In this document: positions 27,771-50,933 of the stretch, one piece after another | How positions within the stretch are numbered: the stretch's first letter is position 1 | How the letters are laid out: the number at the start of each line of letters is the position of its first letter | NCBI RefSeq assembly: GCF_038049925.1 | Contig: NZ_CP145809.1 | Location: 3,444,599 to 3,508,598, forward strand | Direction of reading: 5' to 3' | Length of the DNA: 64,000 bases | DNA from: Georgenia sp. M64 | GTDB lineage: Bacteria; Actinomycetota; Actinomycetes; Actinomycetales; Actinomycetaceae | Notes under the pieces: generated by a model | Seen by the model: only the letters and a program-made list of their open reading frames with translations | Told to the model about the DNA's origin: nothing | Databases searched by the model: none | Translations under genes and position numbers: made by a program

Positions 27771-28247
27771 TCAGGCGTCGAGGCGCGCCGCGACGTCGGG
27801 CGGGAACCCACCCGTCGCGACCGGACCCCACCGCGTGGGGGTGATCCGGATGAGCGACTTGCCCTGGAGCACCATCGCCGCGCGGTACTCCGCCCAGTCC
27901 GGGTGCTCGCCGGCGATGCAGCGGTAGTAGTCGACGAGCCCCTCGACGGCGTCGGGCGTGTGGAGCACCTCGGCGTCGCCGTCGAGCTGGACGTAGGGGC
28001 CGTCCCACGTGTCGGAGAGCACGCAGACCGAGGCCCGCGGGTCCCGCTGGAGGTTCACGGCCTTCGCGCGCGCCGGGTAGGTGGAGATGACGATGCGGCC
28101 CTCGCCGTCCACGCCGCCCGCGACCGGGGAGACCTGGGGCCGGCCGTCCTTGCGCAGGGTGACCAGGAGCATGTGGTGCCGCGGACGCACGAAGTCCAGG
28201 AGCCCGGCGAGGTCCACCTTCTGCGTCGTCGCGATCGTTCTGGCCAT
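27771..28247 (-). CDS. PNPOx-fold F420/FMN-dependent oxidoreductase-like protein
   Basis: 158 residues from ATG at 28247. A split beta-barrel flavin-binding fold is indicated by HHMLLVTLRKDGRPQVSPVAGGVDGEGRIVISTYPARAKAVNLQRDPRASVCVL, a pattern typical of actinobacterial TIGR03618-type F420-dependent enzymes, and by the C-terminal IRITPTRWGP. Family members bind F420 or FMN and reduce varied substrates, or act as haem/biliverdin enzymes. Single gene; divergent from the YeiH-type transporter. Confidence 0.85.
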   Translation of the reverse strand: MARTIATTQKVDLAGLLDFVRPRHHMLLVTLRKDGRPQVSPVAGGVDGEGRIVISTYPARAKAVNLQRDPRASVCVLSDTWDGPYVQLDGDAEVLHTPDAVEGLVDYYRCIAGEHPDWAEYRAAMVLQGKSLIRITPTRWGPVATGGFPPDVAARLDA

Positions 28248-28406
28248 GACCCGATCCTAGGCCGGATCGGCTCCGCGGCGACCTCGTCGGAAGGGCACCA
28301 CTGGACCGCTCGCGCCGGTCCGACCTGGTGTGGCCATAGTCTCGGGCTATGGCTCCATCGCGAGATCGGCCTACTACGGGAGGTCGCGAACGGGCAGGGT
28401 GGAGGG

Positions 28407-30354: not shown

Positions 30355-30438
30355 GCCGTGCTCACCGGTCGCGGACGGACGAGGGCCAGGACACGGGGCC
30401 GTGCGCCGTCGTGCTCATGGACGGCTCACCGGGACCGC

Positions 30439-31635
30439 TCACGGCGTCGCCTCTTCAGCCACCGGGGGGTCCCCGCGGCGGGAGACCGTGGTCACGACGG
30501 TGGCGGTCGCAAGGAGGAGGGAGAGCATCCAGAACACGGCGCGGGACCCGACGACGCCGGACACGCCGGCCGCTGCGGTGGGAGCCAGCACCTGCCCCAG
30601 CCGGTTTCCCACGAGCCGGACGGCGAGCGCCCGACCGCGGAGCGTCTGCGGGACGAGGAGGGCCAGCCACGACATGGTCAGCGGCTGCCCGAAACCGAGC
30701 GTGAGGCCCAGCACGGTCATCAGGATGACCAGCAGCGCCGTCTCGGTCATGAGCGGCAGAACCCCCATGACGAGCGCGGCGACCGCCGTCGAGACGATCA
30801 GGACGAGCGCTCTCGAGGTCCAGGCCACCAGGCGCCCGATGAGCAGTCGGGACGCGATGGAGGCCGCGGCGCGCACGGACAGGAGCATGCCGACCACGAG
30901 GGGCGGGATCGAGGTCTCCTCCCCCAGCACCGGCAGGTAGGCGGTCAGGATGTCGATCCCCGCCAGGACGATGAGACCGACGTAGATCGCGGAGGTCGCC
31001 CCGCGGTGACGGAGCACGTCGCGCGCGCCGCGTCCGAGCCCGTCCGTGCCGGACCTGGAGACCTCCGTCCTCGGACCGCCCCGAACCAGGGCGAGGCTGG
31101 AGAACGCCGTGACCAGGCAGGCGGCGGCGGCGATGAACATCGCGGTGCTCGTCCCCGCCCTCGCATCGCCCGCCGCGGTGAGCACAGCCGTACCGGCGAT
31201 CGGGCCCAGCAGCTGCCCGAGTGAGGCTCCGGCCGTGAAGATCCCGAAGTTGCGGTCGTAGCTCTCGTCCGGCGACTCCTGCGTGATGAGGATCTGCAGC
31301 GCGAGCATGAGCCCGATGTGGCCGGCCCCGAGGACGACCGACGCGACAACCGCCTGCACGGTGGTCGCCATCAGGGCGAGCCCCAGCGCCCCGACGACCA
31401 TGATCGCGCTGCCCACCGTGCCGAGGATCGCGGTGCGCCGCCCGGTGGCCAACCTGCTCAGCGGCAGGGCAAGGAACAGCGGGGCCAGCGCGAACGCGGC
31501 TGTGACGATGCCGATGCTCGTGCTTCCCTCACCAAGGGCGAGCAGCCGGTAGGACGTCATCGGCCGGACGATGTGCAGGGCCGCCTGGGAGGTCATGAGC
31601 CCGAACGCGACAAGACCCAGCCTGATCGGCGTCAC
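30439..31635 (-). CDS. MFS transporter
   Basis: 398 residues from GTG at 31635. Twelve hydrophobic segments are seen, with the MFS loop between helices 2 and 3 as LPLSRLATGRRTAILG. The RPMTSYRLLALGEG start of helix 1 to 2 is typical of drug:proton or metabolite efflux members. It is the last gene of the ten-gene carboxylate operon, 43 bp after the Ldh_2-type gene. It could export a toxic intermediate or import the substrate, alongside the tripartite transporter in the same operon. Substrate is unknown. Confidence 0.82.
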   Translation of the reverse strand: MTPIRLGLVAFGLMTSQAALHIVRPMTSYRLLALGEGSTSIGIVTAAFALAPLFLALPLSRLATGRRTAILGTVGSAIMVVGALGLALMATTVQAVVASVVLGAGHIGLMLALQILITQESPDESYDRNFGIFTAGASLGQLLGPIAGTAVLTAAGDARAGTSTAMFIAAAACLVTAFSSLALVRGGPRTEVSRSGTDGLGRGARDVLRHRGATSAIYVGLIVLAGIDILTAYLPVLGEETSIPPLVVGMLLSVRAAASIASRLLIGRLVAWTSRALVLIVSTAVAALVMGVLPLMTETALLVILMTVLGLTLGFGQPLTMSWLALLVPQTLRGRALAVRLVGNRLGQVLAPTAAAGVSGVVGSRAVFWMLSLLLATATVVTTVSRRGDPPVAEEATP

Positions 31636-31678
31636 TGCGACAGCGCTCCGTCGGTCGTCGGGACCGGCCCGAGGACGC

Positions 31679-32791
31679 TCACCGGGGGCCGGCAGGTTCG
31701 TCGGCGCGCGGGCCCTCCGCCCGGTCCAGCGGGGACGGAAGCTCGACCTCGTAGGCCTCGGCGGTTCCGGCCAGGGCTCGGACGACATGGGCGGAGAGGG
31801 GGACGCCGTGAGCAGTGGCGTCCATCTCTCGCTCGTGCTCGATCTCCCCCGGGAGGTAGATCCGCTCCACACCCTCTGCCCTGGCACTGCCGCGTACCTG
31901 CCTGACGAGTCCGTCGACCCGAGATGTGAAGGTGTCGACCGTCGAGAACCGGGCGACGTCGATGGCGATGAAGAGGTGGCCGACGTCCTGTCGCGCCGCC
32001 GCGTCCTGCGGGGGCTGCAGGTCAGAGGTCGACGACGCGCCGGTGAGCAGACCGGCGAGGACGTCGACCGCGAGGGCCATCGCGTAGCCCTTGTGCCCGC
32101 CGATCGGCTGCAGGAGCCCCTCCAGCGCGGCAGCAGGATCGGCGGTCGGATGCCCGTCCTTGTCGAGCGCCCACGTGGTGGGTATCGCCTGTCCCAGGTC
32201 GAGGGCTTTGCGGATCCGTCCACGAGCGACCGCCGTCAGGGCGAAGTCCATGACGATCGGCTCTTCACGTCCCGCAGGGACGGCCATCGCCCAGGGGTTC
32301 GTGCCGAAGAGGGGTGTCAGCCCACCGGTGGGCGCGAGCGCCGGAGGTGCGTTCGTCGTGACGATGCCGATCATGCCCCGAGGCGGTGCGTACATCGCGT
32401 AGGCGTCCGTCGCTCCGAAGTGGCCGCTGCCCCGCACGCCCACCACCCCGACCCCGACGGACGCCGCGAGCTCGAGCGCACGCTCCATCGCCCGGTGGGC
32501 GGCCAGGTGGCCCATCCCCCCGGCGGCGTCGAGGAGTGCGGTTGCGCCGGAGGACCGCACGAACTGCATGGAGGCGCCGGGATCGATGCCTCCCGACCGG
32601 ATGCGGTCGGCGTACATCGGGAGGCGGACGAGCCCGTGGGTCTCGATGCCCCGAAGATCCGCACGGACGATCAGTGGTGCGACGGTCCGGGCGTCCTCGG
32701 TGGACAGTCCCGCCCGCACGAGGACCTCCTCCGCGAAAGCCTCGAGCGCCCCGGCGTCGTACCGGTGTGCTGCGGGTGTTTCCGTTGTCAC
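31679..32791 (-). CDS. Malate/L-lactate dehydrogenase family (Ldh_2) oxidoreductase
   Basis: 370 residues from GTG at 32791 behind GGGAGA. The family fold (not Rossmann) is clear: ADLRGIETHGLVRLPMYADRI with the catalytic His, GMGHLAAHRAMERAL, VGVRGSGHFGATDAYA, GLTPLFGTNPWAMAVP and GGHKGYAMALAVDVL. Members oxidise 2-hydroxy acids (malate, lactate, sulfolactate, ureidoglycolate) with NAD(P). In this operon it would make a 2-oxo acid for the IorA-like or DapA-like enzyme. The substrate cannot be read from sequence. Confidence 0.9.
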   Translation of the reverse strand: MTTETPAAHRYDAGALEAFAEEVLVRAGLSTEDARTVAPLIVRADLRGIETHGLVRLPMYADRIRSGGIDPGASMQFVRSSGATALLDAAGGMGHLAAHRAMERALELAASVGVGVVGVRGSGHFGATDAYAMYAPPRGMIGIVTTNAPPALAPTGGLTPLFGTNPWAMAVPAGREEPIVMDFALTAVARGRIRKALDLGQAIPTTWALDKDGHPTADPAAALEGLLQPIGGHKGYAMALAVDVLAGLLTGASSTSDLQPPQDAAARQDVGHLFIAIDVARFSTVDTFTSRVDGLVRQVRGSARAEGVERIYLPGEIEHEREMDATAHGVPLSAHVVRALAGTAEAYEVELPSPLDRAEGPRADEPAGPR

Positions 32792-32904
32792 GGGGATCTC
32801 CCAGCTGTCGGGATCGGCGGAGGAGAGGTCGTCCTCCGCGCCGGACGAGGCGTAGCCCACCCCCAGGTGTCGTCGTAGCCGCCGGGTGGGCCACGCACTG
32901 TGAC

Positions 32905-34581
32905 TCACGTTCGGCGTTCCGATCGCTCGTCGTCGGGCCCGAACGGCACCGGCTGCGCCGCGTCCGGGACCTTGGCGCGGGGGACCCCGCCGTCGGAGCC
33001 CACCGCGACCGGGCGGTCGGCGCCAGCGTCTGCACCGCCGGGAGGCACACCGCCCGGACGCACGTCCCCGGGGTCGGGACGCGAGCGGCCGCCGTCCGGG
33101 CCGGGCATCCGCCGCCGGCGGATGATCCCGGCAAGGAGCGGCCAGAGGACCGTGACGATGGTGAGGGCGAGCAGCACCAGTGCGAGGGGGCGCTGGAGGA
33201 AGATGTCCAGCGACCCCCCGGAGATGACCATCGAGCGGCGGAACGAGCCCTCGACCAGCTTGCCGAGGACGATCGCCAGCACGATCGGGGCGATCGGGAA
33301 GTCGAACCTCCGGAACGCATAGCCGACGACACCGAACGCGATGGCGACCCACACGTCGAAGATGGTGTTCGAGTCCGAGTACGCCGCCACCAGGCTCAGG
33401 GCGAGGACGAGAGGCATGAGGACCCGTGGGGAGATGAGGGTCACCCGAGCCCACAGCCGCACGCCGCCCAGCCCGAGGGCGAGCATGACGAAGTTGCCGA
33501 CGAACAGCGCGCCGAAGAGTCCGTAGATGAGGTCCGGCTCGTTCTGGAACAGCAGGGGCCCCGGGGTGAGCCCGTGGATGAGGAAGGCCCCGATGAGGAT
33601 GGCCGCCGTCGCGGACCCGGGGATACCGAGGGCCAGCAGCGGCACCAGCGAGCCGCTGACGGCGGCGTTGTTGGACGCCTCGGGGGCCGCGACACCCCTC
33701 AGGTCCCCCTTGCCGAACGTCTCCGGGTGGCGGGAGGAGCGCTTCTCCTGGCTGTAGGCGACGAACGAGGAGACGGAGGCGCCGGCGCCGGGGAGCACGC
33801 CGATGAGGAAGCCGATGATCGAACCCCTGACCATGGCGGGCGCCGCATAGCGGTACTCCTTCGTCGTGGGCATTCCACCCCGGAGCTTCGTCTCGGGCTT
33901 GACTCCCTGCAGGGACTGCTCCACGGAGACGAGGACCTCGGAGATGGCGAACAGCCCGATGAGCGCCGGTACCAGGGTGATTCCCTCGTACAGCTCCGTG
34001 ACGTAGGTGTAGCGCGGGGAGCCGGTGAGTGCGTCGAGCCCGATGGTGCTGACGAGCAGGCCCACGCACACCGCGATGAGTGCCTTGAGCTGTGACCCGC
34101 TGCCGAGCGTCGCCGCCACGGTGAGGCCGAAGACGGCGAGGGCGAAGTACTCCGGAGGGCCGAAGCGGAGGGCGATCTCGCCGAGCTGGATGGCGGCGAA
34201 CATCAGCCCCACCGTGCTCACCAGACCACCGAAGAAGGAGGCGCCCATCGACATCCCGAGCGCCTTCTGGGGTTTGCCCTGCTTCGTCAGCGGATAGCCG
34301 TCGAAGGTCGTCGCGGTGGCCCCCGCCTCGCCAGGGATGTTCATGAGGACGGCCGTGATGGACCCTGCGTACTGTGCGGCCATGTACAGGGCGGTGAGCA
34401 TCGCGAGGCTCGTCAGGGGCGACATGTCGTACGTGAACGGCAGGAGCAGCGCGACGGTGACCGCGGGCCCCAGGCCTGGTAGCGCCCCGACGATGTAGCC
34501 CAGGACGACCCCGACGACGATGGCCAGGAGGATGACGGGCTGGGCGGCCTGGCTGAGTGCGGTGAGGAGGTTGTCGATCAT
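32905..34581 (-). CDS. tctA: Tripartite tricarboxylate transporter, large membrane subunit TctA
   Basis: 558 residues, about 11-12 membrane helices. TctA signatures are GALPGLGPAVTVALLLPFTY, YAGSITAVLMNIPGEAGATATTFDGYPL, FGPPEYFALAVFGL, LPGAGASVSSFVAYSQEKRSS and NNAAVSGSLVPLLALGIPG. A basic, Pro/Gly-rich cytosolic tail of about 65 residues (PGPDGGRSRPDPGD and on) exceeds the usual length. It works with TctB (9-bp gap upstream) and TctC (encoded four genes earlier in the same operon) for sodium- or proton-driven uptake of a carboxylate. Confidence 0.95.
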   Translation of the reverse strand: MIDNLLTALSQAAQPVILLAIVVGVVLGYIVGALPGLGPAVTVALLLPFTYDMSPLTSLAMLTALYMAAQYAGSITAVLMNIPGEAGATATTFDGYPLTKQGKPQKALGMSMGASFFGGLVSTVGLMFAAIQLGEIALRFGPPEYFALAVFGLTVAATLGSGSQLKALIAVCVGLLVSTIGLDALTGSPRYTYVTELYEGITLVPALIGLFAISEVLVSVEQSLQGVKPETKLRGGMPTTKEYRYAAPAMVRGSIIGFLIGVLPGAGASVSSFVAYSQEKRSSRHPETFGKGDLRGVAAPEASNNAAVSGSLVPLLALGIPGSATAAILIGAFLIHGLTPGPLLFQNEPDLIYGLFGALFVGNFVMLALGLGGVRLWARVTLISPRVLMPLVLALSLVAAYSDSNTIFDVWVAIAFGVVGYAFRRFDFPIAPIVLAIVLGKLVEGSFRRSMVISGGSLDIFLQRPLALVLLALTIVTVLWPLLAGIIRRRRMPGPDGGRSRPDPGDVRPGGVPPGGADAGADRPVAVGSDGGVPRAKVPDAAQPVPFGPDDERSERRT

Positions 34582-34590
34582 CGTGACCCC

Positions 34591-35064
34591 CTAGGGCAGA
34601 GGAACATTGAGGATCCTGTCGAAGACGTAGAAGGCCCCGGCGGTGTAGATCGCGGCGGAGAGGGCGAGGGTCTTCCAGGAGCGGACCCCCGCCGCGGCCA
34701 TCGTCACCAGCACGAAGACGACTGTGAGCGGGACGAAGCCGACCTCCCACAGCAGGGGGTAGGCGACGATGGCCACCCACATGGTCGCGAGCATCGGCCA
34801 GTGGACCGCGTCGCGCTCTCCCGGGTGCGGGCGCGCCCACACGACGACGACGAGCCGGACCAGGGAGAGGCCGATCATGATCCCGGCGACCATCCGCGGG
34901 AAGAAGGCGCTCCCCAGGTCGGTAGGCGCGTAGGAGCGCCCGGTCGGCGCCTCCACGATGAACGCCGTCGCGACGACCATGAGGCCCAGGAGGACAGCCA
35001 CCTCACCGAGGTAGGCCGTGAGGGGTGCACGGCCCCCCACGGAGACTGCCCCGACGTCAGCCAT
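34591..35064 (-). CDS. tctB: Tripartite tricarboxylate transporter, small subunit TctB
   Basis: 157 residues with four hydrophobic helices (LLGLMVVATAFIVEAP, MIGLSLVRLVVVVWA, MLATMWVAIVAYPLL and the FVLVTMAAAGVRSWK region), the TctB layout. The SAFFPRMVAGIMIGL motif is typical of the family. Its start overlaps the end of the DapA-like gene by eight bases, so the lyase and transporter are translationally linked. Confidence 0.88.
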   Translation of the reverse strand: MADVGAVSVGGRAPLTAYLGEVAVLLGLMVVATAFIVEAPTGRSYAPTDLGSAFFPRMVAGIMIGLSLVRLVVVVWARPHPGERDAVHWPMLATMWVAIVAYPLLWEVGFVPLTVVFVLVTMAAAGVRSWKTLALSAAIYTAGAFYVFDRILNVPLP

Positions 35065-35989
35065 CGACCCCAGCCGCCTTCAGAGCGGCATCCAGCCGAG
35101 GCTTCACCGCGTCGCCGGCCGGCATCACCGGGAGCCGGGGCTCCCCGACGTTCCAACCCCGCCGCGACATCATGTACTTGATGGCGCCCGGGATGGGCGC
35201 CCAGTGGCAGGCCTGGATGACGGGCAGGCACCGGTAGAACAGCTCCCGGGCGCCGGCCACGTCCCCGGCCGACCACGTCTCGTAGATCTTCACGAGCTCC
35301 GGGGCGATGATGTTGCCCGAGAAGCTGATGGAACCCGGTCCGCCCATCGCGAGGACGGTGAGCAGGTCGAACTCACCGCGGGACCAGACCGGGATCCGCT
35401 GCCCCAGACGCCGGTAGCTCTCCACGAGCAGCGCCGGGTCGGCCTGCTTGAGTCCGACGACGTCCTGGTACTCGTCGGTGAGCCGCTCGATGACGTCGAG
35501 CGGCAGGTCGACCGACGTGCGGTCCGGGTTGTTGTAGAGCACGGCGGCGAAACCGGGCGTCGCCTCGATGGTGCGCCGGTAGTGCTCGTACAGCCCGGCC
35601 GCGTCCGGCCGCGTGAACAGCGGCTGCACGAGGAAGTACGCGTCGGCGCCGATCTCCTGGGCACGCTTCGTGAGCCGGATGGTGTGGGCGGTGTCGGGCC
35701 GACCGGGATAGGCGGTGACCAGCGTCCCGGTGCCGGCGCACTCCTCCACGGCGATCTCGAGCAGCCGCGCGTACTCGTCGTCACTGGTCTGCATCACCTG
35801 GCCCGTCGCCGCGGACGGCTGCACGTATCCGACGCCCGACTCGATCAGCCACTGCAGGTGTCTGCGGTACTCGGACTCGACCACGTTCCCGTCGTTGTCC
35901 GTCGGGGTCGCGACGACGACTCCGATCCCCCTGATCACGGGACGCTCCCACCTGAAGGCGTCCCACTCCTTGTTCCCCACTTCACGCAT
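35057..35989 (-). CDS. DapA/DHDPS-family class I lyase or aldolase
   Basis: 310 residues. The ATG at 35989 has AAGGAG six bases upstream; a GTG at 36013 has none. It is a TIM-barrel class I aldolase: Schiff-base Lys181 (VVGLKQAD), Tyr152 (VLYNNPDRT) and an altered substrate loop, PSAATGQ instead of the usual G-T-T-G-E. DHDPS-family members act on pyruvate-derived adducts (dihydrodipicolinate synthase, N-acetylneuraminate lyase, keto-deoxy sugar acid aldolases and dehydratases). The operon context suggests cleavage or dehydration of a 2-oxo acid from the imported carboxylate rather than lysine synthesis. Confidence 0.88.
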   Translation of the reverse strand: MREVGNKEWDAFRWERPVIRGIGVVVATPTDNDGNVVESEYRRHLQWLIESGVGYVQPSAATGQVMQTSDDEYARLLEIAVEECAGTGTLVTAYPGRPDTAHTIRLTKRAQEIGADAYFLVQPLFTRPDAAGLYEHYRRTIEATPGFAAVLYNNPDRTSVDLPLDVIERLTDEYQDVVGLKQADPALLVESYRRLGQRIPVWSRGEFDLLTVLAMGGPGSISFSGNIIAPELVKIYETWSAGDVAGARELFYRCLPVIQACHWAPIPGAIKYMMSRRGWNVGEPRLPVMPAGDAVKPRLDAALKAAGVDG

Positions 35990-36052
35990 GCTGCTCTCCT
36001 TCTGTCTTGTCACGATGTGGTCGTCCGGGCCGTGCCGTGCCGGCGCTCGGTG

Positions 36053-36535
36053 TCAGGCGGGTACCGCCGAGAGCGCTGCCCGCGCTTCTGCGAGGAGCGC
36101 GGCGACCACCTCGGCGTCGGGGCCGCCCTCGACCCAGATCACCTCGGCCCCGGCTGCCGTGAGCTGTTGCGCCGCGGCGTCGAGGGACGGGTAGTCCGCT
36201 CCGCGGTGCAGCACCGTGGACGGGAGGACTCGTTGTGTCAGGGAGATGACCACCATGCCCGGGGTGAAGTACTTCACCGCGCAGCGCAACGCCTCCAGCG
36301 GTTCGAGACCGACCACGAGGTGGCACTCCCCGGGCTTCACGAGAGGCACGACGGCCGAGGAGTCGGCGCCCAGACGGGCGTGGGCCTCGACGCCACGGCC
36401 TGGCCGCGCGTCGGGGTTGCCGCAGACGCTCGCGCTGGACGTGTCCGTCAGGGCGCCGTCGGCGAGGTCGCGTGCCAGCGCGTACACGGCCTGGCCCGCC
36501 ACACCTGCGACGACGATGCCGGTCGCGCCGCTCAT
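36053..36535 (-). CDS. IorB-like (2-oxoacid:ferredoxin oxidoreductase gamma) subunit, short and divergent
   Basis: 160 residues from ATG at 36535, overlapping the IorA-like gene by four bases. The fold of the gamma/IorB subunit is recognisable: GIVVAGVAGQAVYALARDLA (normally GVGGQG), AHARLGADSSAVVPLV, VGLEPLEALRCAVKYFTPGMVVISLTQRVLP and ADYPSLDAAAQQLTAAGAEVIWV. The HGMAQRGG motif typical of IorB is replaced by ASVCGNPDARPGRG, and the C-terminal helices appear missing (about 190-200 residues is usual). It probably pairs with the IorA-like protein, but in a changed reaction. Confidence 0.75.
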   Translation of the reverse strand: MSGATGIVVAGVAGQAVYALARDLADGALTDTSSASVCGNPDARPGRGVEAHARLGADSSAVVPLVKPGECHLVVGLEPLEALRCAVKYFTPGMVVISLTQRVLPSTVLHRGADYPSLDAAAQQLTAAGAEVIWVEGGPDAEVVAALLAEARAALSAVPA

Positions 36536-38379
36536 CGCTGCTCCCTCTCGGTGCCGGGCCAGACGGTGATGGCGTCCGGCGCGATCTGCTTGCAGTCCCC
36601 GACTCTCACGCAGAGCCTCCCGTCGATCTGTGCCCTGCCGTCGGCGAAGCCGAGGGCGGGGCAGGCGAACTCCTCGATCTGCTTGCGGTACGTCTCGGCC
36701 TTCTGCGGGTCGATCTCGACCCTCTCGACCAGGCCCTCCGCAGGGCGACCCACCGCGAGAACCACCGAGACCCCGTCGACCGCCGCACACTCCTCGAGCG
36801 CCTCGTCGACGGCCGTGATGTCCCGCGAGTCGACCTTGACGAGGTGGTGCACGCCGATGGCGCGGAGGGTCCCCTCGATGTCCAGCGGCGCCTCGTCACC
36901 GCGCAGACCGGCGGTCGACGTGGGTGTCGGCTGCCCGCCCGTGGACTCCATGGTCCCGTTGTCGACCACGAGGAGGACCAGCCGTGCCCGGTTGTAGACG
37001 GCGTCGGCGACGCCGTTGAGGGCGAAGCCGTACAGGGTGCCGTCGCCCACCACCGTGACCACCAGCGCGCTGGGGTCGCTGCGGGCGGCTCCGACGGCCA
37101 TCCCGATGCCAGCGCCCATCGCCGAGTGGGCCTTCATGAACGGCCGTCCGATGGACGCCGCCTCGCCGACGTCGCCCATGAACACGACGTTCTCGTGCCG
37201 TCGCGCGAAGCGGCGCAGGGCGAAGAAGGTGGGGCGGTGCGGGTTCCCCGGCGCCGGCGCCGCCGGCCGCTCGGGGAGGTCCAGGTGCACGCCGGCGCTC
37301 GTCGTGGTCGTGGCGCCCACGAGCTCGCCGACGGCGTCGGTCACCATGGTGGGGGTGAGCTCGCCGACGGGTGGCAGCGCACCGGTGCCGCGTCCCATGA
37401 CCTGTGTCGCCAGGCCCGCCCGATGAGCGAGGACGGCAACACCCTCCTCGACGACGGGCTCGATCTCCTCGACGACGAGCACGCGCTCGCACCGCCCCAG
37501 GAAGGGCTCGAGCACCCCTTCGGGAAGGGGGTTGATGGTCGAGAGCTTGGCCACCGGCACCTGTGCGGACGCCCCGTGGCGCTCCAGCGCCTCCAGGACG
37601 AAGTGGTAGGCGTTGCCGGACGCGATGACGCCCACAGCCGCCGCCCCCCCCGGCCCCTCCACGCGGTCCATGCCCCATGCCGACGTCACCGTCGGCACCT
37701 GCGCGAGCGTGCTGTGGAGCCGGCGGTGCTGGCCGAGGATGGGCCGGGACTGGTAGTGGTGGGAGTCCCAGACGGGCGCCGACGCCGGCGTCGGGTCGTT
37801 CCGCGGCGTGACCGGGCCCGCCCAGTCGCTCAGCCACTTCACGAGCCTGAGATAGACGGGGACGGAGAGCTCCTCCGAGAGGTCGTAGGCGTGGCCGATC
37901 AGCTCGTAGGCCTCCTGCGGCGAGGATGCCTCCAAGCAGGGCATGTCCGCAGCCTTGGGATACGGCCTGGTGTCCTGCTCACTGTGAGAGGTGTGGCCCT
38001 GAGGGTCGTCGCCGACCACGATGACGAGGCCGGGGATGAACATCAGCGGGGCGGCGAAGATCATGTCCGCGGCGTTGTTGGCGCCGAAGTGCTTCATCAC
38101 CGCCATGGCCCTGACGCCGCCCATGGCGGCACCGGCGGCCGCCTCGACCGCCACCTTCTCGTTGAGGGACCACTGCACCTGCGGACCGCCGTGCGCCGAG
38201 AGCTCAGCCAGTGCGTACACGAGCCCGGTGGTGGGGCCCCCCGGGAACGCGGAGACGAACGAGACCCCGGCGTCGGCGGCACCGCGGGCCACCGCCTGGT
38301 TGCCGCTGAGCAGCAACCGGCTGCCCCCCGGGCCCGTGACCTCCGACCGCTGACCGGTCGAGGTCGCCGTGCCGGTCAC
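36532..38379 (-). CDS. IorA-like thiamine-diphosphate enzyme without Fe-S clusters
   Basis: 615 residues from GTG at 38379 behind GGTGGAG. It aligns with indolepyruvate:ferredoxin oxidoreductase alpha: pyrimidine domain LLSGNQAVARGAADAGVSF and SLNEKVAVEAAAGAAMGG, then the TPP site VVGDGTLYGFALNGVADAVYN and NGTMESTGGQP. The C-terminal ferredoxin domain is still alignable, but only three of eight cluster cysteines remain (in ACPAL, RLCVR and GDCKQ). Neither [4Fe-4S] cluster can form normally. It may use another electron acceptor or act as a non-oxidative 2-oxoacid decarboxylase or lyase. It overlaps tctC and the IorB-like gene by four bases each. Confidence 0.82.
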   Translation of the reverse strand: MTGTATSTGQRSEVTGPGGSRLLLSGNQAVARGAADAGVSFVSAFPGGPTTGLVYALAELSAHGGPQVQWSLNEKVAVEAAAGAAMGGVRAMAVMKHFGANNAADMIFAAPLMFIPGLVIVVGDDPQGHTSHSEQDTRPYPKAADMPCLEASSPQEAYELIGHAYDLSEELSVPVYLRLVKWLSDWAGPVTPRNDPTPASAPVWDSHHYQSRPILGQHRRLHSTLAQVPTVTSAWGMDRVEGPGGAAAVGVIASGNAYHFVLEALERHGASAQVPVAKLSTINPLPEGVLEPFLGRCERVLVVEEIEPVVEEGVAVLAHRAGLATQVMGRGTGALPPVGELTPTMVTDAVGELVGATTTTSAGVHLDLPERPAAPAPGNPHRPTFFALRRFARRHENVVFMGDVGEAASIGRPFMKAHSAMGAGIGMAVGAARSDPSALVVTVVGDGTLYGFALNGVADAVYNRARLVLLVVDNGTMESTGGQPTPTSTAGLRGDEAPLDIEGTLRAIGVHHLVKVDSRDITAVDEALEECAAVDGVSVVLAVGRPAEGLVERVEIDPQKAETYRKQIEEFACPALGFADGRAQIDGRLCVRVGDCKQIAPDAITVWPGTEREQR

Positions 38380-39395
38380 TGCTCCACCAGTCCCGCGTCG
38401 GTGAGGAGCTTCAGGTAGACCTCGTCCTGCTCCGTCACGGCCTCGCGCGTCTCCTCCGAGTCGAGGAAGCGCGGCGCCGACCCACCGGAGACCATCGCCT
38501 CCTGGAACTCGGGGTCCTCCACCGCCGTCTTCATCGCGCTCTCCAGCACCTCGATGCGCTCGGGCGGCGTGCCCTTCGGGACGAGGATGACGCGGACGGT
38601 CTCGAACACGATGTCGTACCCGGCCTCCGTGAAGGTCGGCACCCCCGGCATGGCCTCCTCCAGCGGCTCCTCCGCCGTGATGGCCAGCACGCGGATGTTG
38701 CCCGCGTCGAGCTGGGCGCGGAGCTCGGTGGGTGAGGCGAAGGTGGCGTCCAGGGTCCCGCCGGCGGTGTCCGTGACGGCGCCGGCGGCGCCGCCGTCGT
38801 AGGGCACGAGGCTGAAGACGTTGCCGACCGCGTCGTTCACGAGCGTGGCCGCCAGGAAGTTGTTGCCGCCGACGGCGGTGGTCCCGACGTTGAGGGGGCT
38901 CTCCTCACCGGCCGCAACGAGGTCTTCGAATGTCTGGTGCGGGGAGTCGGCCGGGACCGCGATGCCGTAGGGCTCGGCCTGGATGGTGGCGACGGTGTCG
39001 AAGTCCTCGGACCCGAACTCAGAGGTGCCGATCGGCTTGAGCGCGGACAGGGAGGAGGTGATGACCATCATCGTGTACCCGTCCGGCTCCGCCTCGTGCA
39101 GCTTGGCGAGACCGATCGCACCCGAGCCGCCGGGCAGGTTCGTCGGCGTCACGGTCACTCCGAGCTCTGGCTCGATGATCCGCGCCACGAGCCGGGCGGT
39201 GACATCCGACCCGCCGCCCGCGTCGTAGGGGATGATGAACTCGATGCGCTCGGTGGGGAAGTCGTCGGCCGCCGCCTCCCCCGTCGCATCGGCGTCGTCC
39301 GGAGAGCCGCTGGATCCTCCAGATGCTGTGGATCCGCACGCCGCCAGGGCGAGCGTGGCCACCATGGCGGTCAGGGCCGGGAGTGGGTTACGCAC
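38376..39395 (-). CDS. tctC: TctC solute-binding lipoprotein
   Basis: 339 residues from GTG at 39395, eight bases after AAGGAG. Lipobox LALAAC, then the TctC/Bug fold: RIEFIIPYDAGGGSDVTARLVA, TPTNLPGGSGAIGLAKL, DGYTMMVITSSLS and VPTFTEAGYDIV. It captures a carboxylate outside the cell for TctAB encoded downstream. Its start lies inside the last codons of the dehydrogenase gene and its stop inside the start of the IorA-like gene, placing it between catabolic genes rather than beside tctAB. Confidence 0.93.
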   Translation of the reverse strand: MRNPLPALTAMVATLALAACGSTASGGSSGSPDDADATGEAAADDFPTERIEFIIPYDAGGGSDVTARLVARIIEPELGVTVTPTNLPGGSGAIGLAKLHEAEPDGYTMMVITSSLSALKPIGTSEFGSEDFDTVATIQAEPYGIAVPADSPHQTFEDLVAAGEESPLNVGTTAVGGNNFLAATLVNDAVGNVFSLVPYDGGAAGAVTDTAGGTLDATFASPTELRAQLDAGNIRVLAITAEEPLEEAMPGVPTFTEAGYDIVFETVRVILVPKGTPPERIEVLESAMKTAVEDPEFQEAMVSGGSAPRFLDSEETREAVTEQDEVYLKLLTDAGLVEQ

Positions 39396-40371
39396 GACGG
39401 GACTCCTTCGTCTCGGTTGTCGTTCGGTCGCGTTCGGTAGTCGTTCGGTTGGTCGTCGTCTGCTCCGGGTCGTCGATGTGCTCGTGCGCCCGCTCGTGGT
39501 CGGCGTAGAAGCTGACGACGGCCTCGTAGCGCTCCGGCGGAATGCCGCCGAAGTGCTCGCGGGCGCCGCTCGAGGCTGACCTGCGCATCCGCTCGAGCGT
39601 TCCCCTCGTGGCGAGGGGCTCCACGCCCTGGGCCTCGAGGAGCGCGATGACGTCCTCGACCTCGTGCACCCGCCGACCGGCGTGGATGGCGTTGCCGGTG
39701 ACGTAGCGGTTCGCCGCCGCCGGGAACCTCTGACTGGCGAGGGTCTTCTCGATGGAGGTCAGGACGGTATCGGAGACGCCGAGGCTCTCGGCCGCCATGA
39801 GCGTCTCGACCAGGAGTGCCTCGATGCCCTTGGTGAACACCGAGCGGCACAGCTTGATGGCCGAGGCGTCGCCGGCCTCGTCGGACACGACGTCGATGTC
39901 CATCCCGACGGCGCCCAGCGCCTCGAGGTGGCCGGCGGCGAAACGGCCGCTCGCCAGGATCGGAACCCGTTGCGCGAGAACTCGGACCGGTCCGACGATG
40001 GCGAGGTCCGCCACGGGCACGGGCCCGAGCAGGTCGGCCACGTGGACCTTGGTCCGGGGGTGCGACGCTGTCAGGTCGTAGTACGCGGCGCCTCCTCCGA
40101 GGTGCTCCCTGACCGAGGCGGCCGCCTCGACCGCGAACGAGCTCGGTACCGCCGAGAACACGGCGTCGCTCGCCGTCGCGATCTCCTCCGCGGAGCCGAC
40201 CAGGCGCACGCCGACGTCCTGCGCGCGTGACGCGACGAGCCGTGCCGCGTCCGAGCCGGGCGGTGCGGCGTCGTAGGCGAGCACCCGCACGTCGCCGCCC
40301 TCGTCGCGCAGGCCGCGGGCGAAGGACGACCCCACCTCGCCGAACCCCAGAAAGCCGATGGTCAGAGTCAT
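39388..40371 (-). CDS. 3-hydroxyisobutyrate/phosphogluconate dehydrogenase-like oxidoreductase
   Basis: 327 residues from ATG at 40371, overlapping the MmgE/PrpD gene by four bases. Rossmann start TIGFLGFGEVGSSFARGL, then YYDLTASHPRTK and the catalytic-lysine helix GDASAIKLCRSVFTKGIEAL. The C-terminal domain resembles DUF1932-type members. It would oxidise a beta-hydroxy acid with NAD(P). The last 25 residues are an odd Thr/Arg/Glu repeat (TTTNRTTTERDRTTTETKE), encoded by DNA that also carries the ribosome-binding site of tctC. Confidence 0.85.
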   Translation of the reverse strand: MTLTIGFLGFGEVGSSFARGLRDEGGDVRVLAYDAAPPGSDAARLVASRAQDVGVRLVGSAEEIATASDAVFSAVPSSFAVEAAASVREHLGGGAAYYDLTASHPRTKVHVADLLGPVPVADLAIVGPVRVLAQRVPILASGRFAAGHLEALGAVGMDIDVVSDEAGDASAIKLCRSVFTKGIEALLVETLMAAESLGVSDTVLTSIEKTLASQRFPAAANRYVTGNAIHAGRRVHEVEDVIALLEAQGVEPLATRGTLERMRRSASSGAREHFGGIPPERYEAVVSFYADHERAHEHIDDPEQTTTNRTTTERDRTTTETKESRRA

Positions 40372-41762
40372 GCGATCACCTCGTGGGTCGTGACACGGTG
40401 CCGGAGGAGGCCGTCGACCGAGGTCGCGTCCGAGCCGACCGTCTCGACGATCTCCGCCGCCGCGCCGCTCGTCAGCAGCGGTGAGGCGAGGTCGGTGAAC
40501 TTGCGCGTCACCTGCTCGGACGTGAGCGGGCGCTCCGGCATCCCGGCGGCGGACTCGGCGACGGCACTGAGGGAGGACCCGTCCGCGAGTCGGACAACGA
40601 CCTCGGTGGGACGTCGTGCGGGAAAGGCGTCGGTGAAGCTCGGCTCCTCCGTCACGCGGGTCCGGCCGGCGAGCGCGAGGACCGACGTGTCGGACAGCCC
40701 GGAACGAACGGAGTCGATCGAGACCACACCATGGTGCAGGCACAGCGAGACGAGGAACGGGATCGAGAACTGCCCCTCCTGGAACGTCTGCGGCTCTGCG
40801 TTGCGCAGGACCGAGGCGGCTCGGTACGTCGCGACCTCCACCGCCACGATCTGACTCGCCTCGACACCTCTGCGCCGCAGGTCGAGAGCGGCCTCGATCG
40901 CCGTGAAGCCGTGTCCACAGGCGGTGTAGGGCTTGAAGTAGTTCGAGAGAATCTCCGTCCGCGCCCCGAGCCCTTCGGTCACCACCTCCGGTCGGACCTC
41001 GTCGGAGTAGGCACGGAAGAAGCCCTCCGGACCTTCGAGGACGTCCTCGGGTCCGGTGAAGCCGTTGCGTGCCAGGAGCGCCGCGAGCACCCCGGCCTGT
41101 GCCGCGTGCCCGGCGTGGAGGTGCTTGGTGGGATGCAGCCCGTTGAGGAACGCGAACACCCCGCCGGCCATCGAGGCGGCCACCGCAAGGGCCATCGCGG
41201 TCTCGTGCGGCCCGAGACGGAGCATTCGGGCCGCCCCGGCGGCGGCCCCCAGGACGCCCACGGTCCCGGTGCTGTGGAAGCCACGGTAGCGGTGCGAAGG
41301 GTTGATGGCCCGACCGATGCGGCCACCCACCTCGTACCCCACGACGATGCCCTCGAGGACCGCGGAGATCCCCGCCCGCTCCTGCTCCGCGACTGCCAGG
41401 ACCGCGGGGATGACCGTTGCGCCCGGGTGGTAGCCCGCCGCGAACCGGTGAGAGTCGTCGAGGTCGAGGGCGTGGGCCGAGATCCCGTTGCACAGGGCGG
41501 CCGACGGGGCGGACATCTTCAGCCCCTCACCGACCACCGTTGCGGGTCCGCTCTCACCGAGCGCCCGCATGGTGTCCCGCACGATGTGCGCCGACCGGCC
41601 GTATGCCGCTCCCGCGAGCATGGCGCCGACCGTGTCGAGCAGCACCAGACGCGCCCGCTCCTGCGTCTGCTGGGAAAGGTCGGCGAACCTGATGTCGCTG
41701 AGGTCCGCAGCCAGCGCCCCGGCGAGCGACCCGTTGAGCTGAACCTGCGCGGTGTCGACCAC
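40368..41762 (-). CDS. MmgE/PrpD-family dehydratase/decarboxylase/epimerase
   Basis: 464 residues if started at GTG 41762, which follows GGAGAGGGGG and lies about 35 bases after a likely transcription start. ATG at 41828 would fall inside the promoter/operator. The family pattern is plain: ARLVLLDTVGAMLAGA, NGISAHALDLDDSHRFAAGYHPGATVIPA, HSTGTVGVLGAAAGAARML, GLHPTKHLHAGHAAQAGVLAALLA and KPYTACGHGFTAIEAAL. Members include 2-methylcitrate dehydratase, cis-aconitate decarboxylase and iminodisuccinate epimerase, all acting on polycarboxylates, which matches the tripartite transporter. First gene of the ten-gene operon. Confidence 0.85.
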   Translation of the reverse strand: MVDTAQVQLNGSLAGALAADLSDIRFADLSQQTQERARLVLLDTVGAMLAGAAYGRSAHIVRDTMRALGESGPATVVGEGLKMSAPSAALCNGISAHALDLDDSHRFAAGYHPGATVIPAVLAVAEQERAGISAVLEGIVVGYEVGGRIGRAINPSHRYRGFHSTGTVGVLGAAAGAARMLRLGPHETAMALAVAASMAGGVFAFLNGLHPTKHLHAGHAAQAGVLAALLARNGFTGPEDVLEGPEGFFRAYSDEVRPEVVTEGLGARTEILSNYFKPYTACGHGFTAIEAALDLRRRGVEASQIVAVEVATYRAASVLRNAEPQTFQEGQFSIPFLVSLCLHHGVVSIDSVRSGLSDTSVLALAGRTRVTEEPSFTDAFPARRPTEVVVRLADGSSLSAVAESAAGMPERPLTSEQVTRKFTDLASPLLTSGAAAEIVETVGSDATSVDGLLRHRVTTHEVIA

Positions 41763-41802
41763 GGGCGCCCCCTCTCCGTCGAGTTTCGGACCTGCGCTCC
41801 GG

Positions 41803-41856
41803 ACGGTAGGGAGGGTGACCTCTGTCATGCAACGGTCGGTTGCACGATATGAAACG
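41803..41856 (-). promoter_or_regulatory. Promoter and IclR-type operator of the carboxylate operon
   Basis: The palindrome TGCAAC-N5-GTTGCA (41828-41844) is preceded on the minus strand by CGTTTCATATCG. The -35 TTGCAT overlaps the right arm and TACCGT lies 18 bp downstream as -10. The same arrangement occurs at the divergent promoter, making this a probable binding site for the IclR protein encoded nearby. Confidence 0.65.
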
Positions 41857-41971
41857 TACCGTTCGTGATGCCCGAATTCTGGGGACACGACGGCCGCATC
41901 CTCATGAGGCGCCCTGCACCTGCGGTTATCTGGATGCGTTGCCCAGGGCCGGGTGGTGGGAATGACGACCG

Positions 41972-42026
41972 CGTTTCACATCGCGCAACACAACGTTGCG
42001 ACTGTGCGTGGGCCGGGGCCTAGTCT
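41972..42026 (+). promoter_or_regulatory. Promoter and IclR-type operator of the aldehyde dehydrogenase unit
   Basis: CGCAAC-N5-GTTGCG (41984-42000), preceded by CGTTTCACATCG, matches the divergent site in arm sequence, spacer length and flank, on the opposite strand. TTGCGA at 41996 serves as -35 and TAGTCT at 42021 as -10 (19-bp spacer). Repression, or effector-dependent activation, of both transcripts by one regulator is likely. Confidence 0.65.
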
Positions 42027-42081
42027 GCGCGAAGGGGGCACGAGCGCCCCGCCCGCGGCACATCTACATCTCGGAGGCGAC

Positions 42082-43566
42082 ATGACCATCGATTCCGCGC
42101 GCGTGTCAGAGAACGAGCGGACCCTGTTGGCCAGGGTGCCGAAGGGGCTCTTCATCGCCGGGGAGTGGCGAGACGCCGCCGGCGGCGCCACGTTCGGCGT
42201 CGAGGACCCGGCGACCGGAGACCTCCTGGCACATGTCGCCGACGCGTCCGCGGCCGACGGGGCTACGGCGCTCGAGGCCGCCCGCGCCGCACAGCCCACG
42301 TGGGCCGCCACGCCACCGCGCGAGCGATCGGACATCCTCGACCGCGCGTACCACGCCGTCGTCGAGCGCATCGAGGACTTCGCGCTCGTCATCACCCTCG
42401 AGATGGGCAAGCCGCTGGCCGAGTCCCGCGGCGAGGTCCGATACGCCGCGGACTTCCTGAAGTGGTTCAGCGAGCAGGCGGTCCGGATCCGGGGAGACTA
42501 CCGCGTCAGCCCGGACGGTCAGTCGCGCCTGCTCACCCTCCGCCAGCCCGTCGGGCCGTCGCTGCTGATCAGCCCGTGGAACTTCCCGCTCGCCATGATC
42601 ACCCGGAAGGTGGCACCGGCACTGGCTGCGGGATGCACGGCCGTGCTCAAGCCGGCCGAGGACACTCCCCTGACGTGCCAGCTCCTTGCCGAGGTGCTCT
42701 CCGACGCAGGGCTGCCTCCCGGTGTGCTGAGCGTCCTTCCGACCAGCGATCCCGCCGGGCTCGTCGGGCCCATGCTCGCGGACGAGCGGCTGCGGAAGGT
42801 GTCCTTCACCGGTTCGACGGCGGTGGGGCAGAACCTCCTCATCGGAGCCGCTCAGAACGTGCTGCGCACGTCCATGGAGCTCGGCGGGAACTCCGCGTTC
42901 CTCGTCTTCGACGACGCGGATCTGGACGCCGCTGTCGAGGGCGCCCTCCTCGCCAAGCTCCGTAACGGAGGCGAGTCCTGCGTCGCGGCCAACCGCATCC
43001 TCGTCCAGTCCGGTGTCGCGGACGAGTTCGCGGAGCGGCTCGCCGACCGGATCAGCCAGGTCAAGGTCGGCCGCGGCACCGAGCCCGGCACACAGCTGGG
43101 CCCGATGATCAACCGCGAGCAGCGCGACCGCGTGCAGCTCCTCGTCGACGACGCGGTGCGCGGCGGTGCGACCGTCGTCACGGGCGGATCTGCTCCCGAC
43201 TCCGACGGCTACTTCTACGAGCCCACGGTCATCACGGGCGTCTCCGCGTCGGCACGGATCACGCACGAGGAGGTCTTCGGGCCGGTTGCACCGGTCTACA
43301 CCTTCGACCACGAGAACGAGGCGCTGAGGGCGGCCAACGACACGAGGTTCGGGCTCGTCTCCTACGCCTACACCCGGGACATCGGCCGCGCCCTGCGCGT
43401 CGCCGAGGGCCTCGAGGCCGGGATGGTCGGAGTGAACCGCGGCCTGGTCTCCAACGCCGCGGCACCGTTCGGCGGGGTCAAGCAGTCCGGGCTCGGCCGT
43501 GAAGGCGGTTTCGAGGGGATCGACGAGTATCTGTCGGTCAAGTACGTCGCCATCGACAAGCCGTGA
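42082..43566 (+). CDS. NAD(P)-dependent aldehyde dehydrogenase, succinate-semialdehyde type
   Basis: 494 residues from ATG at 42082 behind CGGAGG. Aldehyde dehydrogenase motifs are complete: SPWNFPLAMITRKVAPALAAG with Asn167, FTGSTAVG, MELGGNSAF with Glu266 and GGESCVAANR with nucleophile Cys300. The overall pattern (PFGGVKQSGLGREGG, EEVFGPVAPVY) is that of GabD-like succinate-semialdehyde dehydrogenases. It would oxidise an aldehyde released in the divergent catabolic operon. IclR and Usp genes follow closely. Confidence 0.92.
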   Translation: MTIDSARVSENERTLLARVPKGLFIAGEWRDAAGGATFGVEDPATGDLLAHVADASAADGATALEAARAAQPTWAATPPRERSDILDRAYHAVVERIEDFALVITLEMGKPLAESRGEVRYAADFLKWFSEQAVRIRGDYRVSPDGQSRLLTLRQPVGPSLLISPWNFPLAMITRKVAPALAAGCTAVLKPAEDTPLTCQLLAEVLSDAGLPPGVLSVLPTSDPAGLVGPMLADERLRKVSFTGSTAVGQNLLIGAAQNVLRTSMELGGNSAFLVFDDADLDAAVEGALLAKLRNGGESCVAANRILVQSGVADEFAERLADRISQVKVGRGTEPGTQLGPMINREQRDRVQLLVDDAVRGGATVVTGGSAPDSDGYFYEPTVITGVSASARITHEEVFGPVAPVYTFDHENEALRAANDTRFGLVSYAYTRDIGRALRVAEGLEAGMVGVNRGLVSNAAAPFGGVKQSGLGREGGFEGIDEYLSVKYVAIDKP

Positions 43567-43579
43567 CGCAGAGCTTGCG

Positions 43580-44347
43580 ATGAGCGCGACCCCGGGTAGA
43601 GGGACAGGGACGATCCAGTCGGTCGAGCGAGCGCTGGACGTCCTCCTCGCGCTGGCGATCGCCCCTGGCGCGGGTCCGACGACCATCGGTGCGCAGCTGG
43701 GCCTGCACAAGAGCACGGTCCATCGGCTTCTCCGCAGCATGGAGTCGCGGGGGTTCGTTGCGCGGGACAGCGCCACGGACCGCTACCGCGTCGGACCCGC
43801 GGCACTGCAGCTGGCCCAGTCCTCCGCGATCAGGCCCGACCTCGCCGCCGTCGCCCAGCCCGAGCTGACCAGGCTCCGTGATGCCACCAGCGAGACCGCG
43901 ATCCTCGACATCCGCGTGGGTGCGTCGCGGATGTGCATCGCCCAGGCGGAGTCCCGCCAGGAGATCCGGCGCTCGCAGCCCCTCGGCTCACCGATGGAGA
44001 TCCACGCCGGTGCCATGGGCAAGGTTCTCCTGATGGACGAGCCTGTCGACCACCTCCAGGAGATTGCCCAACGGGTCGGCTTCCGCAAGCTGACCGACCA
44101 CACGCCCGTGACCGTCGAGGCGCTGATCGCGCAGATCCACAAGCTTCGGCGGGACGGCTACCTCGTGTCCGTCGGCGAGCGCGTGAAAGGCGCGACGACG
44201 ATCGCGGCGCCGGTCCGCTCATCGTCCGGCCAGGTGGCGGCCGCCGTCGCCGTGAGCGGGCCGACCTTCCGCTTCGGCGTCCCTCAGGCCCGTGCGGTCG
44301 TGCCCCAGCTGCTCGAGACCGCCGCTCGGATCGCCGCGAGGCTCTGA
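43580..44347 (+). CDS. IclR-family transcriptional regulator
   Basis: 255 residues from ATG at 43580, 13 bp after the dehydrogenase stop. N-terminal winged helix (TIQSVERALDVLLALA, GPTTIGAQLGLHKSTVHRLLRSMESRGFV) and C-terminal GAF-like effector domain (PMEIHAGAMGKVLLM, VTVEALIAQIHKLRRDGYLVSVGERVKGATTIAAPV) are typical IclR. It most likely controls both divergent promoters through the paired palindromes at 41828 and 41984, and so autoregulates its own operon. Confidence 0.92.
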   Translation: MSATPGRGTGTIQSVERALDVLLALAIAPGAGPTTIGAQLGLHKSTVHRLLRSMESRGFVARDSATDRYRVGPAALQLAQSSAIRPDLAAVAQPELTRLRDATSETAILDIRVGASRMCIAQAESRQEIRRSQPLGSPMEIHAGAMGKVLLMDEPVDHLQEIAQRVGFRKLTDHTPVTVEALIAQIHKLRRDGYLVSVGERVKGATTIAAPVRSSSGQVAAAVAVSGPTFRFGVPQARAVVPQLLETAARIAARL

Positions 44348-44405
44348 GTCGCGCTCGTCCACCGACAGAACCCCATCCCAGACCCGACACCGAATGGAGA
44401 CGTCC

Positions 44406-44816
44406 GTGTTCGACAACATCGTCATCGCCCTCAAGGAAGGGCTGCCCCACGACCGGCTTCTGGACCTCGGAACGTCGGTCGCCCGTGAAGGAGCCAAGAT
44501 CCACCTCGTCACCCTGGTTCGTGTGGGTACCGACGAGGACGAGCCGAAGCGGCTGGCCGCAGTGGGTGAGTACCTCGAGCAGCGAGCTGGGCAGCTTCGC
44601 GACCGAGGACTCGACGCCACGTGGGAGCGTGGTCTCGTCGTGGTCGCCGCGGCCGCCGACATCCTTCAGGTCGCCGGCAGCAGGAACGCCGATCTCGTCG
44701 TCATCGGGCTGGCGAAACGGACACGTGTGGGCAAGGCTCTCATGGGCAGCGACGCCCAGCGGATCATGATGGGCGCCCCGTGCCCCGTGCTGGTGACCCA
44801 GCTCTACCGCGACTGA
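44406..44816 (+). CDS. Single-domain universal stress protein
   Basis: 136 residues. GTG at 44406 sits seven bases after GGAG and gives the usual [11 protein letters not shown] start; the ATG at 44394 overlaps that ribosome-binding site. It has one UspA domain: the nucleotide loop ends as [33 protein letters not shown], close to the G-x2-G-x9-G-S/T motif of ATP-binding members. Usp proteins often accompany TctABC/IclR carboxylate clusters. It is the last gene of the aldehyde dehydrogenase unit. Confidence 0.88.
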
Positions 44817-44910
44817 CGCGGCCGCCGACCTCGCGAGACAGCCGACCCGGCGGTGCCGCGCGTCGCTACGCTGGCGCCGCACCCCCCCTCGACGACGAAG
44901 GACGGCCCCA

Positions 44911-50921: not shown

Positions 50922-50933
50922 CGACGGACCCGC

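What the first reader, a model, noticed from the sequence alone, without database searches (positions are those of the whole stretch)
30439..44816. Uncharacterised carboxylate catabolic system: ten-gene operon plus divergent ALDH-IclR-USP
Genes for MmgE/PrpD, beta-hydroxyacid dehydrogenase, TctC, IorA-like, IorB-like, DapA-like, TctB, TctA, Ldh_2-type dehydrogenase and MFS lie in one direction, many overlapping by 4-8 bases. An aldehyde dehydrogenase, IclR and Usp form the other arm. Established: TctABC and PrpD members handle polycarboxylates, DapA members cleave or dehydrate 2-oxo acids, Ldh_2 makes 2-oxo acids. Inference: import, isomerisation or dehydration by PrpD, oxidation, aldol cleavage, then TPP-dependent decarboxylation and aldehyde oxidation. 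I know of no described pathway with this gene set.
Basis: partly seen in the sequence, partly recalled or inferred. Interest (0 to 1): 0.75.

Follow-up and report, generated by a model that had tools for sequence, protein, structure and literature searches.

The report
Acid-catabolism island with cluster-less enzyme
A bacterium carries a block of genes, missing from a close sister species, that looks built to import and break down an unknown organic acid, and one of its enzymes resembles an iron-sulfur enzyme that has lost its iron-sulfur sites and may have become a simple decarboxylase.

Summary
The genes are real and correctly placed: ten on the minus strand (PrpD, DUF1932 dehydrogenase, TctC, IorA-like, IorB-like, DapA-like, TctB, TctA, Ldh_2, MFS; six of nine junctions overlap by 4-8 bases) and ALDH-IclR-Usp on the plus strand. 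New here: (1) with LysR and YeiH genes they form a 16.6-kb segment (28266-44855) absent at this place in a sister species whose flanks match at 87-96%. (2) The IorA-like protein keeps thiamine (TPP) motifs but only 3 of 13 cysteines conserved in 31 relatives; the IorB-like protein lost its signatures. In an archaeal relative the cluster is needed for oxidative but not for non-oxidative decarboxylation (PMC5020499, passages), so I read the pair as an iron-sulfur-free 2-oxo-acid decarboxylase feeding the ALDH. (3) DUF1932 relatives lie near RraA genes in 4 of 4 plasmid regions viewed, and near 4,5-cleavage-pathway genes in 3 of 6 same-class loci; this genome has no RraA match, so the DapA-like protein may do the cleavage. 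(4) Two palindromes with the same arms lie between the two arms. Substrate, reactions and co-transcription are not shown.

The parts
28266..44855 (.). segment absent at this place in sister species G781 (gain here or loss there not settled)
   Evidence: blastn of 40 kb of G781: collinear hits end at window 28265 and resume at 44856, 24 bases apart in G781
28407..29456 (+). YeiH family (Cons_hypoth698) membrane protein, possible sulfite/sulfate exporter; start chosen by me
   Evidence: PF03601 232.8 bits; link to the operon unproven
29431..30354 (-). LysR regulator (best NCBIfam score YeiE, 142 bits, cut-off 480)
   Evidence: 84 bases after MFS
30439..31635 (-). MFS transporter (start uncertain)
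   Evidence: PF07690 115.5 bits; start candidates
31679..32908 (-). Ldh_2 family 2-hydroxyacid dehydrogenase
   Evidence: PF02615 391.7 bits
32905..34581 (-). TctA
   Evidence: PF01970 522.5 bits
34591..35064 (-). TctB
   Evidence: PF07331 69.5 bits
35057..36013 (-). DapA-like class I lyase; Lys189 at the Schiff-base position (role recalled)
   Evidence: PF00701 179.2 bits; alignment; position
36053..36535 (-). IorB-like small subunit, motifs lost, short C-terminus
36532..38379 (-). IorA-like TPP enzyme without most iron-sulfur ligands
   Evidence: TIGR03336 424.2 bits, cut-off 650.9; cysteine count
38376..39395 (-). TctC solute-binding protein, probable lipoprotein
   Evidence: PF03401 120.7 bits; LAAC near the N-terminus (lipobox recalled)
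39388..40371 (-). DUF1932 dehydrogenase
   Evidence: PF09130 60.1 bits
40368..41828 (-). MmgE/PrpD family protein (ATG 41828; GTG 41888 also possible)
   Evidence: PF03972 224 bits, PF19305 110.7 bits
41829..41843 (.). palindrome GCAAC-N5-GTTGC, candidate operator
41985..41999 (.). palindrome GCAAC-N5-GTTGC, candidate operator
42082..43566 (+). aldehyde dehydrogenase, nearest to succinate-semialdehyde dehydrogenases
   Evidence: PF00171 535.8 bits; TIGR01780 552.7 bits, cut-off 646.35; solved relatives
43580..44347 (+). IclR regulator
   Evidence: PF01614, PF09339
44394..44816 (+). Usp
   Evidence: PF00582 58.3 bits

Best explanation
The segment is a catabolic island. TctABC imports a carboxylic acid. 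PrpD isomerises or dehydrates it; Ldh_2 and the DUF1932 dehydrogenase bring it to a 2-oxo (likely 4-hydroxy-2-oxo, highly carboxylated) acid; the DapA-like lyase splits that into pyruvate and a second 2-oxo acid or aldehyde; the IorAB-like pair removes CO2 from a 2-oxo acid without ferredoxin or CoA, giving a carboxy-aldehyde; the SSADH-like ALDH oxidises it to a dicarboxylate for the TCA cycle. IclR controls both arms through paired palindromes. Shown by sequence: gene identities, operon layout, loss of iron-sulfur ligands, palindromes, absence from the sister at this place. Inferred: every reaction, their order, the substrate, the operator.
For: Gene identities and overlaps. IorA-like: of 13 cysteine columns present in 29-31 of 31 relatives the window keeps 3 (573, 590, 596); lost are 376, 379, 406, 420, 548, 561, 564, 567, 593, 600; NEK..E and GDG...N motifs kept (roles recalled). 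IorB-like: GVGGQG (25 of 26 relatives) and QRGG (26 of 26) lost. In an archaeal 2-oxoacid:ferredoxin oxidoreductase the cluster was needed for oxidative but not for non-oxidative decarboxylation, and CXGC ligates the proximal cluster (PMC5020499, passages). ALDH is nearest to SSADH. DUF1932 context: RraA beside it in three and within 5 kb in one of four plasmid regions that I picked; in 3 of 6 same-class loci OMA-tautomerase-like and CHA-aldolase genes within 9 kb. No RraA-like match in this genome. Palindromes: 4 exact sites in 4.18 Mb, 2 of them here; reversed-pattern control 2. Segment edges.
Against: No cluster with the same gene order was found, so conserved co-occurrence is not shown. 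IorA searches of 396 (phylum), 396 (order), 394 (class) and 213 (family) genomes, overlapping sets, gave other matches of at best 39% identity over nearly the whole length (40% over 414 residues; short pieces up to 48%); only the 31 loci L005-L035, with at most about 1.5 kb on each side, were compared with the other window proteins, and only IorA matched there. Plasmids: at best 34%. Phyla outside our own were searched only through the plasmid, genome contigs and viral collections. The STGGQPT motif is not specific for decarboxylases: solved ferredoxin oxidoreductase beta chains show a similar one. IorA-like sits on a very long branch (4.56), so decay or a different reaction is possible. The palindromes were noticed by eye first, then counted; within the window with one mismatch allowed, 28 of 100 shuffles reach two matches. 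Three of six same-class DUF1932 loci show no such context.
Confidence: 0.45

Rival explanations
1. Sulfonate route: TTT imports a sulfolactate-like acid, Ldh_2 acts as sulfolactate dehydrogenase, the IorA-like pair as sulfopyruvate decarboxylase, YeiH exports sulfite.
For: Best NCBIfam hit of Ldh_2 is L-sulfolactate dehydrogenase (270.6 bits); the IorA-like TPP domain weakly matches sulfopyruvate decarboxylase beta (31.9 bits); SlcHFG is a TTT for sulfolactate (PMC5812351, passages); YeiH lies inside the same segment.
Against: Ldh_2 is far below the 500-bit cut-off; no sulfolyase or sulfoacetaldehyde acetyltransferase appeared among the window proteins scanned (not every ORF of the window was scanned), and none was searched for genome-wide; PrpD, DapA-like and DUF1932 have no role; the IorA-like protein matches IOR alpha over its whole length; a YeiH relative occurs in 9 of 9 genomes of the genus.
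Confidence: 0.1
2. The IorAB-like pair is still an oxidoreductase or a carboligase that uses another electron acceptor or none, not a decarboxylase.
For: Overall similarity is to IOR alpha (424 bits); IorB-like partner retained; relatives in three same-family genomes appear to lack the ferredoxin domain yet keep CXGC (one sequence is partly masked).
Against: All four cysteines that I assign to the proximal cluster are gone, and oxidative decarboxylation needed the cluster in the studied enzyme.
Confidence: 0.25
3. A loose set of carboxylate genes brought together on an island, some decaying, with no single pathway.
For: No conserved gene order found elsewhere in the limited comparison; long branch of IorA-like; the surrounding region also differs from the sister species elsewhere.
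Against: Open frames, six tight overlaps, codon-position pattern of coding DNA, divergent arm with paired palindromes.
Confidence: 0.2

Closest known systems
Indolepyruvate ferredoxin oxidoreductase (IorAB)
   Same: full-length match of the large subunit, adjacent small subunit, TPP motifs
   Different: 10 of 13 conserved cysteines lost, small-subunit motifs lost
Sulfolobus StOFOR1 cysteine mutants (PMC5020499, passages, citing Yan et al. 2014, not read)
   Same: loss of the cluster ligands with the TPP site kept
   Different: laboratory mutants of a pyruvate enzyme; here a natural, far diverged protein
Itaconate/methylsuccinate cluster with PrpD-family isomerase (PMC12290011, passages)
   Same: PrpD-family protein in a dicarboxylate gene cluster
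   Different: that cluster uses CoA transferase, hydratase, lyase and acyl-CoA dehydrogenase, none of them in this operon
Sulfolactate TTT systems (SlcHFG, PMC5812351, passages)
   Same: TTT; an Ldh_2 dehydrogenase related to sulfolactate dehydrogenase here
   Different: no sulfolyase or Xsc seen among the window proteins scanned
Protocatechuate 4,5-cleavage operons with DUF1932 (L096, L099)
   Same: DUF1932 dehydrogenase; pathway of tricarboxylic 2-oxo acids
   Different: no ring-cleavage, OMA tautomerase or RraA aldolase gene in this operon

Membership tests
Indolepyruvate ferredoxin oxidoreductase | score above NCBIfam IOR_alpha cut-off (650.9) | tested here: not met
   424.2 bits
Indolepyruvate ferredoxin oxidoreductase | cysteine ligands of the [4Fe-4S] clusters | tested here: not met
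   3 of 13 conserved cysteine columns kept
Indolepyruvate ferredoxin oxidoreductase | TPP motif and catalytic Glu region | tested here: met
   GDG at 445 with downstream N, NEKVAVE at 73; role of the residues recalled
Indolepyruvate ferredoxin oxidoreductase | IorB partner with GVGGQG and QRGG | tested here: not met
2-methylcitrate dehydratase PrpD | equivalog cut-off (950 for NF042438) | tested here: not met
   58.8 bits
MmgE/PrpD family | both Pfam domains; active-site His, Asp and Lys | tested here: met
   alignment with IDS epimerase keeps the DDS, HP, GFH, TK and K..C positions, but the Tyr that I take by spacing for its Tyr145 aligns with Arg (residues named)
Tripartite tricarboxylate transporter | TctA, TctB and TctC together | tested here: met
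DapA (DHDPS) | equivalog cut-off 206.15 | tested here: not met
   144.9 bits; Schiff-base Lys kept (role recalled)
Succinate-semialdehyde dehydrogenase | TIGR01780 cut-off 646.35 | tested here: not met
   552.7 bits, best of the 25 hits shown of 40
L-sulfolactate dehydrogenase | cut-off 500 | tested here: not met
   270.6 bits
Any named catabolic operon | same gene order with assayed members | tested here: inconclusive
   none found, but gene order was compared only in short flanks, in four plasmid regions and in six DUF1932 loci; papers:

The most novel reading that the evidence does not exclude
Evolution has turned a two-subunit ferredoxin-dependent 2-oxo-acid oxidoreductase into an iron-sulfur-free, oxygen-tolerant, CoA-independent decarboxylase, and built it into an undescribed pathway for a tricarboxylic or hydroxy-dicarboxylic acid in which a DapA-type lyase replaces the RraA-type aldolase.
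Probability: 0.4. Interest if true: 0.65.

Novelty: new variant of a known kind. Interest (0 to 1): 0.5.

Why it matters
Ferredoxin oxidoreductases are as a rule oxygen-sensitive enzymes of anaerobes (recalled). A natural member that has shed its cluster ligands would show how such an enzyme becomes a plain decarboxylase, and would be a ready test of the mutant-based statement that the cluster is dispensable for decarboxylation. It would also give a lead on the function of DUF1932 dehydrogenases, for which my one paper search found nothing, and on acids imported by tripartite transporters of unknown substrate.

Tried and rejected
The single genome-contig scan gave one locus, L003 (Phycisphaerae); its ORFs show an unrelated protein sharing a short peptide, so it was dropped as chance. 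A viral-contig scan with IorA found nothing. Plasmid searches with IorA, DapA, DUF1932 and PrpD gave best listed identities of 34, 33, 40 and 38%; only four of the DUF1932 regions and one IorA region were opened, none with our gene set, though L047 has a TTT beside DUF1932 and RraA. The idea that the STGGQPT motif marks decarboxylases was rejected because solved oxidoreductase chains share a similar one. The YeiH-LysR pair as part of a sulfite-releasing pathway was weakened because a YeiH relative occurs in 9 of 9 genomes of the genus; LysR was found beside it in 1 of the 11 other YeiH loci, within their short flanks. No structure prediction or fold search was run: without an alignment of permitted relatives the model would be poor. 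The promoter and terminator scans gave nothing above chance.

Rows left out: one search used the 31 IorA loci L005-L035, not all matches (83 of 396 and 3 of 396 genomes matched, own included); 26 IorB relatives were found among those 31 loci. L106-L108 and L051-L057 were looked at only, and L107 holds masked letters. NCBIfam was run on ten proteins from L096, L097 and L098; L099, L100 and L101 were judged from their translations and tblastn only. The other two exact palindrome sites of the genome (L102, L103) were glanced at and not followed.
Full report
Observation. All are where stated. Six of the nine junctions in the ten-gene run overlap by 4 or 8 bases, so one transcript is likely, though not shown.

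The block as a unit. In a genome of the same genus (G781) the left flank (window 27594-28265 at 87.5%; 18286-27469 at 90%) is followed after 24 bases by the right flank (from 44856, 94%), with none of the 16.6 kb between. The direction (gain here or loss there) is not settled, and the two genomes also differ elsewhere nearby (about 6.6 kb extra in G781 before the 18286 block, and window 14235-17166 mostly missing there). The segment is 71.1% G+C against 76.3% and 72.9% in the flanks. No IorA relative was found at E 1e-10 in the eight other genomes of the genus.

The thiamine enzyme. The IorA-like protein aligns over its length with indolepyruvate ferredoxin oxidoreductase alpha but scores 424 against a cut-off of 651. 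Against 31 relatives of the same phylum, 97 of 151 near-invariant columns are kept, but of 13 cysteine columns only three. The lost ones include the CXGC pair at 376 and 379 and those at 406 and 420, which I assign to the proximal cluster (CXGC from PMC5020499; the other two by position, recalled), one at 548, and five of eight in the C-terminal ferredoxin-like domain. The IorB-like protein lost GVGGQG and QRGG and is shorter at the C-terminus. The own genome has one IorA match at E 1e-10, six of fourteen first-look candidates being scored. PMC5020499 (passages read) states that in a Sulfolobus enzyme the cluster was required for oxidative decarboxylation but neither it nor CoA for the non-oxidative reaction; PMC4030962 (passages read) describes a bifunctional pyruvate ferredoxin oxidoreductase and decarboxylase. 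So the natural loss fits a decarboxylase. Against this, the TPP-domain motif is not diagnostic, and the branch is very long (4.56). Three same-family genomes have an IorA that seems to lack the ferredoxin domain and keeps CXGC (one is partly masked), so partial loss occurs elsewhere.

The other enzymes. PrpD is nearest, among solved structures, to IDS epimerase and IRG1-type proteins; methylcitrate dehydratase comes far behind (2.6e-42 against 2.8e-05). Known family members share a C4-dicarboxylate substructure in their substrates, and an enolate mechanism is proposed (PMC12290011, passages). The DapA-like protein keeps the lysine that forms the Schiff base and the Tyr of YNxP (roles recalled) but not two of three residues that I recall as the DHDPS triad (Thr44, Tyr107), so another substrate is likely. 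The ALDH is closest to succinate-semialdehyde dehydrogenases.

DUF1932 context. Of 384 class genomes, 7 including our own have a match at E 1e-25. Of the six others, fetched with flanks, L096 and L099 hold it inside a protocatechuate 4,5-cleavage operon, L097 within 9 kb of an OMA-tautomerase-like and a CHA aldolase gene; L098, L100 and L101 do not show this. In L096, LigA, LigB type, CHA aldolase and OMA tautomerase exceed NCBIfam cut-offs; in L097 CHA aldolase exceeds one of two cut-offs and OMA tautomerase misses narrowly (437.3 of 440). L099 was judged by the likeness of its translations to L096. In four plasmid regions that I picked (of 124 matching records), an RraA family gene is adjacent in three and within 5 kb in one. 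Our genome has no RraA-like match (7 of 14 control genomes ring). This suggests highly carboxylated 2-oxo acids as the substrate class and the DapA-like protein as stand-in for RraA; both are inference.

Regulation. GCAAC-N5-GTTGC occurs four times in 4.18 Mb, twice in the divergent region (41829-41843, 41985-41999); the reversed pattern occurs twice. With four sites placed at random, two within 253 bases has a chance near 0.0007, but the motif was noticed first in this region. In the window alone, with one mismatch allowed, 28 of 100 shuffles reach two matches. That IclR binds them is a guess.

Known? Paper searches returned no paper; others listed papers, of which I read passages of five. 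The library is open-access only, so absence is weak. Verdict: an ordinary kind of island (carboxylate catabolism) with one unusual enzyme; a new variant of a known kind, interest 0.5.

Noticed in passing
50154-58774: Second TTT cluster: TauE/SafE, enolase-family protein, two Iso_dh dehydrogenases, TctB, TctA, TctC and divergent LysR, perhaps for tartrate or malate.
   Followed up: partly
59179-63849: Apparent sugar operon with a sugar-binding-domain regulator, split transketolase, TIM-barrel isomerase and periplasmic binding protein.
   Followed up: no
6299-6470: c-di-AMP riboswitch above Rfam gathering score, minus strand.
   Followed up: no
44911-46230: TrpB-like PLP enzyme, 99% identical in G781 but not matched at E 1e-40 in the seven other genomes of the genus.
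   Followed up: partly
L106, L108 (L107 partly masked): IorA of same-family genomes that seems to lack the ferredoxin-like domain but keeps CXGC.
   Followed up: partly
L096, L099: DUF1932 dehydrogenase of unknown role inside protocatechuate 4,5-cleavage operons.
   Followed up: partly
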